From Thalassovita mediterranea (GTDB lineage: Bacteria > Pseudomonadota > Alphaproteobacteria > Caulobacterales > Hyphomonadaceae), in the NCBI GenBank assembly GCA_019448215.1, contig CP080408.1, forward strand, positions 2,914,001 through 2,978,000: DNA of 64,000 nt. The letters are read 5' to 3'. Every line of letters begins with the position of its first letter. Position 1 is the first letter of the stretch. Positions 492-4,401 of the stretch are shown piece after piece. Position numbers and translations under genes: made by a program. The notes below the pieces were generated by a model. The model saw nothing but the letters and a program-made list of their open reading frames with translations. It ran no database searches and was not told where the DNA came from.

Positions 492-572
492 GAGTAATGC
501 TCGGCGGCTGCCCCTTCCCTTCCCCGGCGTCGCTGTCCTAAACCGCTTCTCTCAAGCAAGGAGACCCGACCT

Positions 573-1244
573 ATGGACGTCAGCCAGGCCGTAAATCAGC
601 GCATCTCGACACGCGCATTTCTCGACAAGCAGATCAGCGCAGATGAAGTGCGTGACTGGCTGGCGACGGCGCAGCGCGCGCCTTCTGGTGGCAACCTCCA
701 GCCATGGCGCGTGATCGCAGTCACCGGCGCTGAAAAGCAGGCGGTCATTGATTTGGCCCAGAAAAAGCTCGCCGAAGACCCGCGCGGCGAGAAGACGGAT
801 CGGCCGATCTATCCCAAGGACCTCTGGGAGCCGCATGAAGCGCGGCGCCGCAAGGTTGGCGAGATGATGTATGAGAAGCTTGAGATCCCTCGCGAAGATA
901 AAGCCAAGCGAATTCAATGGTTTTCGCGTAATTTCCGCTTCTTCGACGCACCGCTGGCTGTCTTCTTCGTGATCGATGAGCGTATGGGTCATGGCCAGTG
1001 GGCACATACCGGCATGTTCATGCAGACGCTGGCCCTGCTCGCCGAAGAGCGTGGCTGGGGCAGCTGTTTCCAGGAGTGCTGGGGCATTCTTCGTCCAACG
1101 CTGAAAGAGCATTTTGGACTGGGAGATACCGAGATGCTCTATTGCGGCATGGCCGTAGGCTATCCGGACCCGGACCACCCGGTGAACCAGCTTCGCGCCG
1201 AGCGGGCTAAGGTCGATGAGTTTGCCGAACTCAAAGGCTTCTAG
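573..1244 (+). CDS. Nitroreductase family protein (FMN-dependent oxidoreductase)
   Basis: A 223-residue protein of the NAD(P)H/FMN nitroreductase fold, which reduces nitro groups, quinones or enones; the natural substrate cannot be read from sequence. The N-terminus has the FMN-phosphate motif pattern R10-I-S-T-R14 and the RAPSGGNLQPW segment (about residues 35-46) that packs on the flavin. An AAGGAG ribosome site at 558-563 fixes the ATG start. A paralogue of nearly equal length and the same architecture lies at 7481-8158. No operon partner: a terminator precedes it and an AT-rich spacer follows. Cytosolic, no signal peptide. Confidence 0.88.
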   Translation: MDVSQAVNQRISTRAFLDKQISADEVRDWLATAQRAPSGGNLQPWRVIAVTGAEKQAVIDLAQKKLAEDPRGEKTDRPIYPKDLWEPHEARRRKVGEMMYEKLEIPREDKAKRIQWFSRNFRFFDAPLAVFFVIDERMGHGQWAHTGMFMQTLALLAEERGWGSCFQECWGILRPTLKEHFGLGDTEMLYCGMAVGYPDPDHPVNQLRAERAKVDEFAELKGF

Positions 1245-1252
1245 GCGACGTT

Positions 1253-1281
1253 TAAAAATTTAAAAAAGACAATTTTTTTAA
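1253..1281. other. AT-only hairpin between nitroreductase and H-NOX gene
   Basis: In a high-GC region, 1253-1281 is almost pure A/T. An A6/T6 stem (1262-1267 with 1273-1279) with a five-base loop could be a weak terminator for the nitroreductase gene or an UP-like element for the H-NOX promoter. The rest of the 251-base spacer (1245-1495) shows no FNR/NNR-type palindrome that I can see. Confidence 0.3.
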
Positions 1282-1495
1282 GGTGTTGGACAGAATGTCG
1301 CAGTGCGCCGAAAGGACAAGTGCGCGCCGCGACGCGGTTTACCATTACCCCTCCAGCGAATGCTACAGCAAAGCGGCCCCACCGGCCGCAACACTGTTCT
1401 GACGGCCCGAATTTTCGCTGAAATTTCAGCTGCGCCGTAGAGCGATCAGCAATCGGAGACATCGCATTCCACGCCATCACTTGAGGGGGATGGGC

Positions 1496-2041
1496 ATGAA
1501 GGGTGTGGTGTTTACTGAATTTCTCGATCACGTCGAAGCTGAACTCGGCGTTATCCAGACACAACGCATCATCGACGCGTGCGAGCTGGAATCAGAAGGG
1601 GCTTATACCTCAGTTGGCACTTATCCCTGCGCCGAGATGGGCAAACTCATCGGCGCTGTGTCCAACACCACGGGCCGTTGCCCGGCCACGTTGCTGAAGG
1701 CCTTCGGCCATCATCTGGCCGGGTCATTCAAGCAAGGCTATCCCGCCTATTTCGAAGTCGATGACTTTTTCGATTTCGTAGAGTCCATAGATTCTCACAT
1801 TCATGTGGAAGTCCAGAAGCTCTACGTGGATGCGGAGCTCCCGGAGTTTCACATCATCATGCGGACGGACGATACGCTGGTCGTCGATTACATCTCATCA
1901 CGGGCCCTTGAGCATCTGGCGTTCGGTCTTCTGGAGGCTTCGGCTCAAGCCTTCGGAGAGACCATCGCCATTGCCATGACGCCGAGAGGTGACGGTGCCA
2001 GTCGTGTCGTCCGTTTCCAGCTTGAGCGGAGGCAGCAATGA
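1496..2041 (+). CDS. hnoX: H-NOX heme-based nitric oxide sensor
   Basis: A 181-residue H-NOX (HNOB, heme NO-binding) domain protein. The proximal heme ligand H103 sits in the HIHVEVQKLY context and the heme-propionate motif YxSxR is present as Y132-S134-R136; the spacing matches stand-alone bacterial H-NOX proteins. The start is set at 1496 because GAGGGGG (1483-1489) is 6 bases upstream and the product then opens MKG, as the family does; earlier TTG 1481 and ATG 1490 lie in or against that ribosome site. Its stop overlaps the start of the GGDEF-EAL gene (ATGA), so the two are co-translated. Family knowledge: NO binding to H-NOX alters the activity of its cognate partner enzyme. Confidence 0.93.
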   Translation: MKGVVFTEFLDHVEAELGVIQTQRIIDACELESEGAYTSVGTYPCAEMGKLIGAVSNTTGRCPATLLKAFGHHLAGSFKQGYPAYFEVDDFFDFVESIDSHIHVEVQKLYVDAELPEFHIIMRTDDTLVVDYISSRALEHLAFGLLEASAQAFGETIAIAMTPRGDGASRVVRFQLERRQQ

Positions 2042-3528
2042 CCAACACGCTCTCAGATCATGAAGTCGCAATGCTCGAGAGGCGCGCAATCCGCGAACGC
2101 CAGTCCCGAAAGGCGGCCGAAAAGATCCTTGAACAGAAGTCGCTGGAGCTATTCGCGGCAAATGCAGAACTCAAGCGGGCCAAAGCAAATTTGAGGGCGC
2201 AGATCGAGGCGCTTCAGGTAGAACGCGACCGCGTCCTGGAAGCCTCCCGGATCGACCACCTTACCGGCCTCGCAAACCGAACGGCCTTTTTCGCGCGTCT
2301 CGAAGCGGCCCTACTCCGCCCTCGACCGCAGCAGACTTCGCTGAAATTGCTCCTCGTCGATCTGCGTCGTTTCAAACTGATCAATGGGCGCGTCGGCCAG
2401 TATGGAGGTGACCTCGTCCTGAAGGCCGTCGCGGCGCGGCTACAGCAGGTTGCCGACGAAGCTCAAGGCTTTGCTGCTCGCTTTGGCGGCAATGAGTTCG
2501 CTCTTTGTCTCGAGCTGCCGGCTGGACAGGCCTTCTGCTACACCCAGCACCTGCAGGAGGTTCTACATCAGCCGATCGAGGTTCTGAACCGGCAGATAAC
2601 ACTCGAAGTCGCGATCGGGGCAGCCGGCACGAACATCGCTGGCTCGGACATTGAAGGCCTTCGCCGCGCTGCTGATTTCGCGATGCAGAAGGCGCGTGCC
2701 CTGCCTGTGGGTGGGGTCTGCGTCTATGATAGCGCCCTGAAAGCTGAAGCGAGCCGGCGCCATGACCTCGAAGTGCTGCTTCGCGAAGCGATCAAGAAAA
2801 ACGAGATTGAACCCTGGTTCCAGCCGATCATCGATCCTCGCGACCCGTCGAAACTTTCATTCGAGGTTCTGGCAAGGTGGCTGGGGCCAGACGGCTTTGT
2901 CGCGCCAATGGAGTTTATTCCACTCGCCGAAGAGCTGGGTCTTCGTCGGCGCCTCGACCGCTATCTACTTCAGCGCGCCTGCGAACTCGCCAAACCATGG
3001 ATAGATGATGGCTGGCTGAGCGACATTTCCGTGAACGTGTCGCCGTCCGATCTCATGTCGCCAGATTTTGTAAGGACCCTGTCCGAAGTCCTTGAACAGA
3101 TTGATTTTCCTCGCGACCGTCTTGTGATCGAAGTGACGGAGTCGGTCTTCATCGAAGACCTCGCCTTTGCCAGAAGCCAGCTCGACGCGTTGCACGCGCT
3201 TGGCCTCAAGGTGGCGCTCGATGACTTCGGCACTGGCTACTCGAACCTGCGCTCCCTGGTCGGGCTGCCACTATCCAAGATCAAGCTGGACCGGTCCCTG
3301 ATCTCTGATCTCGATATCAATGACAGCGTCGCCATGCTGATCAGCACGATCACGCAATGGGCACGGGCGATCAATCTCACCATCGTCGCTGAAGGGGTGG
3401 AGACGGAGAACCAGCTGACGGTTCTGAAGGCGCTGGGTTGTACCAATTTGCAAGGCTACCTGTTCGGCAAGGCCCAATGCGCAAACGACATTGAAGTGGC
3501 TTACCAGCCGAAGAAGATTGCCGTCTGA
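2038..3528 (+). CDS. GGDEF-EAL protein coupled to H-NOX; probable c-di-GMP phosphodiesterase
   Basis: A 496-residue cytosolic protein: N-terminal coiled coil (about 10-70, rich in Arg/Lys/Glu), GGDEF domain (about 70-235) and EAL domain (about 250-490). The GGDEF half is degraded: signature GGNEF at 150-154, and the metal motif reads VDLRRF where active enzymes have a second Asp. The EAL half keeps its catalytic set: E276-V-L, the Asn of the SVNVSP segment, EVTES, D395-D396 in DDFGTGYS, the Lys of KIKLD and the Glu of AEGVE. Inference: NO-responsive c-di-GMP hydrolysis, with the GGDEF half regulatory. The H-NOX/GGDEF-EAL pairing is known from Shewanella and Legionella. ATGA overlap with hnoX. 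Confidence 0.92.
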   Translation: MTNTLSDHEVAMLERRAIRERQSRKAAEKILEQKSLELFAANAELKRAKANLRAQIEALQVERDRVLEASRIDHLTGLANRTAFFARLEAALLRPRPQQTSLKLLLVDLRRFKLINGRVGQYGGDLVLKAVAARLQQVADEAQGFAARFGGNEFALCLELPAGQAFCYTQHLQEVLHQPIEVLNRQITLEVAIGAAGTNIAGSDIEGLRRAADFAMQKARALPVGGVCVYDSALKAEASRRHDLEVLLREAIKKNEIEPWFQPIIDPRDPSKLSFEVLARWLGPDGFVAPMEFIPLAEELGLRRRLDRYLLQRACELAKPWIDDGWLSDISVNVSPSDLMSPDFVRTLSEVLEQIDFPRDRLVIEVTESVFIEDLAFARSQLDALHALGLKVALDDFGTGYSNLRSLVGLPLSKIKLDRSLISDLDINDSVAMLISTITQWARAINLTIVAEGVETENQLTVLKALGCTNLQGYLFGKAQCANDIEVAYQPKKIAV

Positions 3529-3720
3529 AAGTGCACGCATTCGAGAGAGGCCGGGCGGTGATACTTTCCAACCGGACGCACACGCCGTTTCCGTGAAATT
3601 CATGGTGCAGTGACGGTGTGCTGGCGGTGTTTCTGGAGGGTGTCCGAAAACCGACGCCGTTCTTGCCATCGCGCACGCCTGTGACATGCTTGCTTCCTGG
3701 CTGCTGGGAGGGGCTGGGAC

Positions 3721-4401
3721 ATGCGCGCATCCTCGTTCGATTTCATTGGCAATCTCGACACGCTGGTGGCGGTCATCATCGGCGCCTTTCTTGCGACCGG
3801 TGGCGCGCTGATCGCCGAGATCATCCAGGACCGGCTTGGGCGCAAGCGCCGCGAACGGGAGGCTGCGCGCTTCTTTGGTGAGATCATGACCTCCATCGAT
3901 GCGATCATCGACCTCGCCACGAGCTCACAGCAGATTGGCGACAAGTGGGGCCGCATCACCCAGCGCTTTTTCAGAACGGCGCTTCGCGAAGCCAATGTCT
4001 ATGAACGCAATCGCGAACGGCTTTTCGATATTCAGGACATGGATCTGCGCTTTGCGATCAATGAACACTTCCTGCGCGAGACAGTGCCGATCATCGCCTT
4101 GCTGGAACAGACCGACAGCATTGATGCGGCAAGCCGGGAGCTGGCCAGAAGCGAACTCAGCCCGGCGCGGCAGGCACAGCTCGAGGCGGAGATCACGCAG
4201 CAGGCAGCGGACCGCGAGCAATCCCTGGAGGCTATGATCTATCAACGTGAACAGACGTCTGCCTTGATCGAGCGCCTGAAGCCGCTGGCACAAGTTTCGT
4301 TCGCTTCGAATTACAGGCGCCTGGACGAGGAAGGCGAGCCCTCTGGCGCCGAGGAGGAGACGGCCTCGGCCGAACTTGACGGCGCGAAGAAACCGGCCTA
4401 G
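3721..4401 (+). CDS. Membrane-anchored helical protein of unknown function
   Basis: A 226-residue protein I do not recognise. One hydrophobic segment (about residues 10-34) is followed by a basic stretch (GRKRRERE) and then a long, charged, mostly helical region with a likely coiled coil near 125-180 (rich in Glu, Gln, Arg, Ala), ending in an acidic Glu/Ala/Ser tail. The positive charges after the helix suggest the helical body is cytoplasmic. It stops only 9 bases before the LRAT-like gene, so the two probably form one transcript. The 192-base spacer before it (3529-3720) shows no clear terminator or promoter; GGGAGGGGC lies just upstream of the ATG. Confidence 0.7.
   Translation: MRASSFDFIGNLDTLVAVIIGAFLATGGALIAEIIQDRLGRKRREREAARFFGEIMTSIDAIIDLATSSQQIGDKWGRITQRFFRTALREANVYERNRERLFDIQDMDLRFAINEHFLRETVPIIALLEQTDSIDAASRELARSELSPARQAQLEAEITQQAADREQSLEAMIYQREQTSALIERLKPLAQVSFASNYRRLDEEGEPSGAEEETASAELDGAKKPA

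What the first reader, a model, noticed from the sequence alone, without database searches (positions are those of the whole stretch)
1496..3528. H-NOX sensor translationally coupled to a GGDEF-EAL with a dead GGDEF and intact EAL
The H-NOX stop and effector start overlap (ATGA). GGNEF and loss of the second metal Asp argue against cyclase activity, whereas all EAL catalytic residues are present. This predicts a dedicated NO-to-c-di-GMP-hydrolysis switch, likely governing attachment, and flanking nitroreductases raise the possibility of a nitrosative-stress neighbourhood.
Basis: partly seen in the sequence, partly recalled or inferred. Interest (0 to 1): 0.55.

Follow-up and report, generated by a model that had tools for sequence, protein, structure and literature searches.

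The report
Nitric-oxide sensor with hydrolysis-only partner
A marine bacterium carries a nitric-oxide sensor gene overlapping the gene of its partner enzyme, which appears to have lost the ability to make the signal molecule c-di-GMP and kept only the ability to destroy it, and the front end of that partner carries a short helix seen next to most of the sensor genes examined, possibly where the sensor docks.

Summary
Window 1496-2041 is a heme-competent H-NOX; 2038-3528 is a GGDEF-EAL overlapping it by ATGA. The GGDEF site is GGNEF and the EAL catalytic residues are present. The kind is known (H-NOX/HaCE). One residue claim is off: the metal-binding Asp of DxD (D108) is kept; the lost metal ligand is the third residue of GGDEF (N152).

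The broken GGDEF is a lineage trait: 5 of 41 H-NOX-paired GGDEF-EALs have it, 36 keep RxGGDEF. With one orphan they form one clade in an EAL tree (100/100). EAL is the most constrained part. I infer a bifunctional enzyme that became hydrolase-only.

The nitroreductases look unlinked: the upstream one is in 27 of 29 congeneric genomes, H-NOX in 8, and two very similar neighbourhoods lack the pair.

Unexpected: the effector starts with a helix motif found just after the H-NOX stop in 122 of 156 H-NOX loci, before several kinds of output. In a phylum sample all 27 matches above 45 bits follow an H-NOX; weaker ones mostly do not. It is a candidate portable docking helix. The NO effect's direction is inferred.

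The parts
1496..2041 (+). H-NOX (HNOB) NO sensor, 181 aa
   Evidence: PF07700 120.8 bits; best solved relatives 6bde/6bdd and 6ocv, named as H-NOX of K. algicida and S. woodyi; His103 and YxSxR present, no distal Tyr
2038..3528 (+). HaCE-type effector, N-terminal helix-GGDEF-EAL, 496 aa
   Evidence: PF00990 and PF00563; AF2 mean pLDDT 91.4, pTM 0.72
2038..2041 (+). ATGA start/stop overlap
   Evidence: 26 of 122 motif-bearing H-NOX loci share the exact overlap
2065..2184 (+). 40-residue helix motif shared by many H-NOX effectors (candidate docking helix), effector aa 10-49
   Evidence: lies within predicted helix 7-70
2254..2745 (+). degenerate GGDEF domain (D108 kept, D to R110, GGNEF with N152, no RxxD inhibitory site)
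2758..3492 (+). EAL domain with all catalytic residues
1246..3593 (.). segment absent from the corresponding neighbourhood of congeneric genomes G001 and G006 (presence/absence module)
   Evidence: in G001, window 514-1245 and 3594-3649 match with 34 bases between; in G006, 1-1244 and 3583-3649 with 24 between (gap sizes recomputed)

Best explanation
A two-gene NO switch on c-di-GMP. Shown: a heme-competent H-NOX coupled by an overlapping start/stop to an effector made of one long (predicted) N-terminal helix, a GGDEF domain without a complete active site, and an intact EAL domain; the GGDEF damage is inherited and belongs to one small Hyphomonadaceae clade. Inferred: H-NOX docks on the N-terminal helix; NO binding shifts this contact, the shift runs down the helix into the dimer, and EAL hydrolysis of c-di-GMP changes, most likely upward as in S. 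woodyi; the GGDEF domain no longer makes c-di-GMP but is kept as a structural or GTP-binding relay. Output (less attachment, more dispersal) is inferred from other H-NOX/HaCE systems.
For: EAL residues all present and GGDEF ligand lost. EAL dN/dS 0.012-0.029 against 0.070-0.096 for GGDEF in the three close genomes, so both are kept but EAL far more tightly. At EAL identity 0.55-0.70 the GGDEF/EAL divergence ratio is 1.46 (9 pairs) in the degenerate group against 1.19 (8 pairs) in canonical ones. The six degenerate members in the tree form one clade, 100/100. Strong matches to the helix motif lie next to H-NOX. NO with SwH-NOX raises PDE and lowers DGC activity of SwDGC (PMC8846402, passages). 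Own genome has one H-NOX and no FIST/NosP match.
Against: No biochemistry. GGDEF is still under purifying selection (dN/dS below 0.1) and keeps nucleotide-contact residues, so it has some function. H-NOX inhibits its partner in kinase systems, so the sign could be opposite. In Caulobacter, of the same order, Fe(II)-NO H-NOX did not inhibit its kinase and Cys oxidation at a zinc site did (PMC12329717, abstract and passages), so NO response cannot be taken for granted. In P. denitrificans c-di-GMP represses biofilm (PMC5588039), so the output could be reversed. Above 0.7 EAL identity the divergence ratio does not clearly separate degenerate from canonical pairs. The pair is patchy (3 of 29 congeneric genomes), so the role is dispensable. 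G007 keeps such an effector without any H-NOX.
Confidence: 0.6

Rival explanations
1. NO-bound H-NOX inhibits the phosphodiesterase, so NO raises c-di-GMP and favours attachment.
For: NO-bound H-NOX inhibits most studied kinase partners (PMC12329717 and PMC8738867, passages), and H-NOX-adjacent kinases in my loci carry the same N-terminal helix motif.
Against: The only direct H-NOX partner with a working EAL in the review table, SwDGC, has PDE activity raised by NO.
Confidence: 0.2
2. The GGDEF domain is a GTP-sensing module: GTP bound there activates EAL, so the enzyme is a coincidence detector of NO and GTP (as recalled for Caulobacter PdeA/CC3396). Compatible with the best explanation as an added layer.
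For: N116, D125, K113, R148 and D108 are kept in the window clade; PdeA EAL is among the closest solved structures; GGDEF stays under purifying selection.
Against: The sister Hyphomonadaceae members lose D108 and K113 as well (NLQHFQ), so nucleotide binding may not be kept across the clade.
Confidence: 0.35
3. The H-NOX does not signal NO but another state (heme oxidation or Cys oxidation), as reported for Caulobacter H-NOX.
For: Caulobacter is in the same order and its H-NOX acted through Cys oxidation, not NO (PMC12329717).
Against: This H-NOX has Cys only at 29, 45 and 62 and none in its C-terminal half, where the zinc site lies in other H-NOX (positions recalled).
Confidence: 0.08
4. The enzyme is still a working cyclase or bifunctional enzyme despite GGNEF.
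For: The GGDEF fold is predicted intact and most substrate contacts remain.
Against: The third-position acid is a metal ligand (recalled), and the sister branch drifted further (SGTEF, NLQ), as expected after loss of function.
Confidence: 0.08
5. The pair belongs to a nitrosative-stress gene neighbourhood with the flanking nitroreductases.
For: Both neighbours are nitroreductase-family proteins; nitroreductase is listed near hnox in some H-NOX group (PMC8738867).
Against: Upstream nitroreductase in 27 of 29 congeneric genomes against 8 of 29 with any H-NOX; both nitroreductases sit together without the pair in G001 and G006.
Confidence: 0.05

Closest known systems
Shewanella woodyi SwH-NOX / SwDGC (H-NOX-associated c-di-GMP processing enzyme, HaCE)
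   Same: Stand-alone H-NOX next to a GGDEF-EAL; the S. woodyi H-NOX is among the three best solved relatives
   Different: SwDGC has both activities; here the GGDEF is degenerate
Legionella pneumophila Hnox1 / Lpg1057
   Same: H-NOX beside a DGC/PDE protein
   Different: Opposite retention: Lpg1057 acts as a cyclase and its PDE domain is likely inactive (PMC8738867 and PMC8846402, passages)
Paracoccus denitrificans and Dinoroseobacter shibae H-NOX / DGC
   Same: hnoX overlaps the effector gene in P. denitrificans
   Different: Effectors described as cyclases; the P. denitrificans H-NOX lacks the heme His
Caulobacter PdeA (CC3396)
   Same: GGDEF-EAL hydrolase with a degenerate GGDEF (recalled); its EAL heads the structural matches (Z 33.3, tied within 1 with 4rnh, 5m3c, 4rni, 8arv and 5m1t)
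   Different: No H-NOX partner known to me (recalled)
Soluble guanylate cyclase, beta H-NOX on beta coiled coil
   Same: H-NOX/coiled-coil contact proposed as the activation switch (PMC6839917, abstract and passages)
   Different: Here sensor and helix are separate proteins and the output is an EAL hydrolase

Membership tests
H-NOX (HNOB, PF07700), NO-sensing branch | HNOB domain above curated cut-off | tested here: met
   120.8 bits against 25.5
H-NOX (HNOB, PF07700), NO-sensing branch | proximal His and YxSxR heme residues | tested here: met
   His103; Y132, S134, R136
H-NOX (HNOB, PF07700), NO-sensing branch | no distal Tyr for stable O2 binding | tested here: met
   Leu at that position; residue identity recalled from T. 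tengcongensis
H-NOX (HNOB, PF07700), NO-sensing branch | binds heme and NO | not testable with these tools
   needs spectroscopy
HaCE (H-NOX-associated c-di-GMP processing enzyme) | gene adjacent to H-NOX encoding GGDEF and/or EAL | tested here: met
   ATGA overlap; GGDEF and EAL domains
HaCE (H-NOX-associated c-di-GMP processing enzyme) | bifunctional (complete GGDEF and EAL sites), as in SwDGC | tested here: not met
   GGNEF; EAL complete. Not required of every HaCE: Lpg1057 also lacks one activity
HaCE (H-NOX-associated c-di-GMP processing enzyme) | activity changed by NO-bound H-NOX | not testable with these tools
   needs assay
EAL c-di-GMP phosphodiesterase | EAL catalytic and metal residues | tested here: met
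   E276, N333, E365, D395/D396, K416, E452, Q472
Diguanylate cyclase | GG(D/E)EF signature | tested here: not met
   GGNEF, N152
Diguanylate cyclase | RxxD inhibitory site (absent from many active cyclases too) | tested here: not met
   EAQG at those positions
Zinc/redox-sensing H-NOX (Cys-ligated zinc) | three Cys and one His/Gln zinc site | tested here: inconclusive
   Cys only at 29, 45, 62, none in the C-terminal half; zinc-site positions recalled

The most novel reading that the evidence does not exclude
The N-terminal helix of the effector is a portable H-NOX-reading module: one conserved helix, read by the same H-NOX face (helices A-C and F), couples NO sensing to histidine kinases, c-di-GMP enzymes and a class III nucleotide cyclase, and the contact is the same one that sGC uses between beta H-NOX and its coiled coil in the active state. 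In this lineage that module drives a c-di-GMP hydrolase that has shed its cyclase activity.
Probability: 0.38. Interest if true: 0.66.

Novelty: new variant of a known kind. Interest (0 to 1): 0.47.

Why it matters
The review table I saw lists as direct H-NOX partners two cyclases, one bifunctional enzyme and a kinase, none hydrolase-only (PMC8846402, passages). A hydrolase-only partner would be a clean system for asking how H-NOX controls EAL activity, with no cyclase background. The shared helix, if it is the docking site, turns a scattered set of H-NOX partners into one mechanism that can be tested by moving or deleting about 40-60 residues, and would tie bacterial H-NOX signalling to the sGC activation switch.

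Tried and rejected
Nitrosative-stress neighbourhood: disfavoured as above.

Denitrifier context: the COX1-family search of the own genome gave two matches, CtaD- and CcoN-like, so no heme-copper NO reductase was seen (the CtaD-like one scored 623 against an equivalog cut-off of 671 on the matched stretch). Nitrite reductases and flavohemoglobin were not searched.

NosP as second NO sensor: no FIST match in the own genome.

Motif-specificity failures: in the order sample 5 of 42 motif matches are not next to an H-NOX (G289, G290, G032, G259, G007). In the phylum sample 16 of 50 examined are not, all below 45 bits, where only 7 of 23 are next to one (one further match, G106, was not re-examined there but is next to an H-NOX). 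Two of the 16 follow an MCP-signal plus CZB protein. So weak matches are partly generic coiled coil or other sensors. The motif profile was trained on these H-NOX loci, so 122 of 156 is a recall figure, not a test; the genome searches are the test. At least two pairs among the 156 loci come from the same contig (L042/L122, L069/L129). 34 of 156 H-NOX loci lack the motif.

Library coverage: the motif is not free of library matches; several long NCBIfam models start inside it (earliest at residue 22). No Pfam model covers it.

H-NOX surface analysis: 14 of the 20 positions that best separate motif-type (121 sequences) from other H-NOX (33) fall in helices A-C or F (63 of 175 positions; p 0.001), the faces reported by HDX-MS (PMC7108781, passages). 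The two groups are also different subfamilies, so this is weak. One sequence of each group was dropped as too short.

Docking model: residue-level contacts could not be read, because no coordinates or PAE are returned. The active/inactive pattern of the VIA alignment was not seen with Foldseek: there the longest alignments were to ligand-free entries (6jt0, 9oxn; 204-205 columns, rmsd 13-15), while 8hbh stopped at 187 columns. Fold-library absences were not used as evidence.

Rows dropped: the split copy in G072 (L021/L215) and L056 (failed my distance filter); six loci cut inside EAL were refetched in full and re-read.

HNOBA label for the second effector type: one of two tested pieces gave HNOBA at 19.9 bits, under the cut-off of 23.4.

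Literature: ten open-access searches showed no title or abstract start naming such a helix or a PDE-only direct partner. The most direct papers (Lahiri 2014, Rao 2017, Guo 2018, Liu 2012) were not read; the id tried for Lahiri was not held, the others were not tried.

Full report
What is there. Window 1496-2041 encodes a 181-residue H-NOX, and 2038-3528 a 496-residue GGDEF-EAL protein in an ATGA overlap. The H-NOX has the heme His and YxSxR and lacks a distal Tyr, which fits an NO rather than O2 sensor (family knowledge, recalled). The effector has GGNEF and DLR in the GGDEF domain and every EAL catalytic residue. The genus is Henriciella: the closest H-NOX genes, at 97 and 92% protein identity, are in records named Henriciella, and those contigs have the lengths of the contigs of G012 and G003, which one search places in the window's genus. 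The own genome has one H-NOX, 12 EAL matches over the curated cut-off of 13 listed, 16 GGDEF matches, no FIST and two COX1-family proteins, CtaD- and CcoN-like.

How unusual is the dead GGDEF? Of 41 H-NOX-paired GGDEF-EALs that passed my filter (window included), 36 have RxGGDEF and 5 do not: the window, G003 and G012 (GGNEF), and G067 and G050 (SGTEF with NLQ). A split, decayed copy in G072 shares the SGTEF form. G007, in the same genus, has a 53%-identical effector with DLR and GGNEF but no H-NOX match in the genome. In an EAL-only tree of 40 proteins the six degenerate intact members form one clade, support 100/100. Their EAL residues are intact. In the three close genomes dN/dS is 0.012-0.029 for EAL, 0.070-0.096 for GGDEF and 0.075-0.089 for the N-terminal helix. 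The simplest reading is that GGDEF lost catalysis once, in the clade's ancestor, and is kept for something else; this is inference.

Neighbourhood. The upstream nitroreductase is in 27 of 29 congeneric genomes; any H-NOX is in 8 of 29, and this H-NOX/effector pair in 3. In G001 and G006, whose nitroreductase is 98 and 97% identical, the gene is followed by the LRAT-like gene and window 1246-3593 is missing, with 34 and 24 bases between the flanking matches. The pair is a gain/loss module in a conserved block. Whether it was gained or lost was not resolved.

The helix. The effector is predicted to start with one helix, residues 7-70, running into the GGDEF domain (mean pLDDT 91.4, pTM 0.72). 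Its first part matches a 40-residue motif, consensus xxxxLxRRxxRERxARKEAExLLExKSxELYxANxxLxxx (68 sequences). No Pfam model covers it. Among 156 H-NOX loci (15 known duplicates removed) 122 carry it right after the H-NOX stop, median 24 bases. What follows varies: GGDEF-EAL, or, in 20 other effectors that I picked for scanning, HATPase_c in 18, a GAF-class III cyclase in one and only PAS in one cut piece. Independent searches: in 299 genomes of the order, 42 matches in 40 genomes, 37 of them next to an H-NOX, and 27 of 28 above 45 bits; in 398 genomes of the phylum, 34 of 50 examined matches next to an H-NOX, all 27 above 45 bits but only 7 of 23 below. The two samples share a few genomes.

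A natural comparison. In genus g21 the GGDEF-EAL of G315 follows an H-NOX and has the motif (49 bits). Eight relatives at 38-41% identity to the window effector (L234-L241) have no H-NOX in the locus and no motif match even at E 10; seven of the eight, and G315, sit by the same dicarboxylate-symporter gene. So helix and sensor come or go together there. Against this, the G007 orphan keeps a weak motif (25 bits) without H-NOX.

Does it dock? A read-through of H-NOX plus the helix from a Burkholderiales pair (L123) was modelled with mean pLDDT 93.1 and pTM 0.79. Structural alignment of that model by VIA stops at the end of H-NOX in five inactive, ligand-free or cinaciguat-bound sGC entries (8hbe, 6jt0, 7d9t, 9oxn, 6pas), but runs on to sGC beta residues 359-372 in four active or extended-state entries (8hbh, 6jt2, 6pat, 9p2r); 8hbf and an alpha chain, 7d9r, align further but at 14-16 A rmsd. 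The number of extra aligned residues is small and Foldseek does not show the same pattern, so this is only a hint. An sGC study states that beta H-NOX to beta coiled-coil contacts are specific to the active state and that changing Ile41 blocks this interface (PMC6839917, abstract and passages). Ile41 aligns with window Gly41, 98% Gly in motif-type H-NOX and 18% in the others. H-NOX contacts its kinase through helices A-C and F by HDX-MS (PMC7108781, passages), where 14 of the 20 most motif-type-specific positions fall, with the subfamily confound named under tried and rejected.

Mechanism. Shown: gene coupling, residues, conservation, motif distribution. Inferred: NO-bound H-NOX changes its grip on the helix; the helix, probably a dimeric coiled coil, passes this through the GGDEF to the EAL dimer; hydrolysis changes, most likely upward as in SwDGC; c-di-GMP falls and attachment is disfavoured. 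The opposite sign, and a signal other than NO as in Caulobacter, are live rivals.

Known or new. The kind is known: H-NOX/HaCE (PMC8738867, PMC5588039, PMC8846402; passages). The hydrolase-only form is a variant I did not see listed in those passages. The helix was not found described in the searches named under tried and rejected, but the key interface papers were not read, so its novelty is provisional.

Noticed in passing
L116:5001-6944: Planctomycetota MAG with a stand-alone H-NOX followed by helix motif, GAF and a class III nucleotide cyclase: a split, sGC-like pair.
   Followed up: partly
L215:4792-6792 (same genome as L021): Decayed copy of the same lineage in G072: H-NOX with an in-frame stop and an effector split over several ORFs; assembly error not excluded.
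   Followed up: partly
window 3721-4398: ORF of 226 aa without Pfam or NCBIfam match, not found at the same site in G003, G012, G001 and G006, with a 65% homologue in G007.
   Followed up: partly
L205:9001-10518: Orphan GGNEF GGDEF-EAL in G007, downstream of the second nitroreductase of the same block, with no H-NOX match in that genome.
   Followed up: yes
L126:1604-7277: One contig (uncultured Thiotrichales) with two H-NOX genes, each followed by an ORF with the helix motif.
   Followed up: no
L333:1613-3793 and L338:1413-4100: Weak motif matches in ORFs following an MCP-signal plus CZB protein; the helix, or one like it, may serve other soluble sensors.
   Followed up: partly
L083, L084, L085, L090, L217-L221: Second effector architecture: stop-to-stop ORFs of about 600-650 aa with an SPADxSxDLL-like stretch before canonical GGDEF-EAL and without the helix motif, including other Henriciella; HNOBA-like only below cut-off in one tested piece.
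   Followed up: partly
L234-L241: GGDEF-EALs with complete GGDEF and EAL motifs but neither H-NOX nor helix motif, seven of eight beside the same symporter gene as the H-NOX-paired one of G315.
   Followed up: partly
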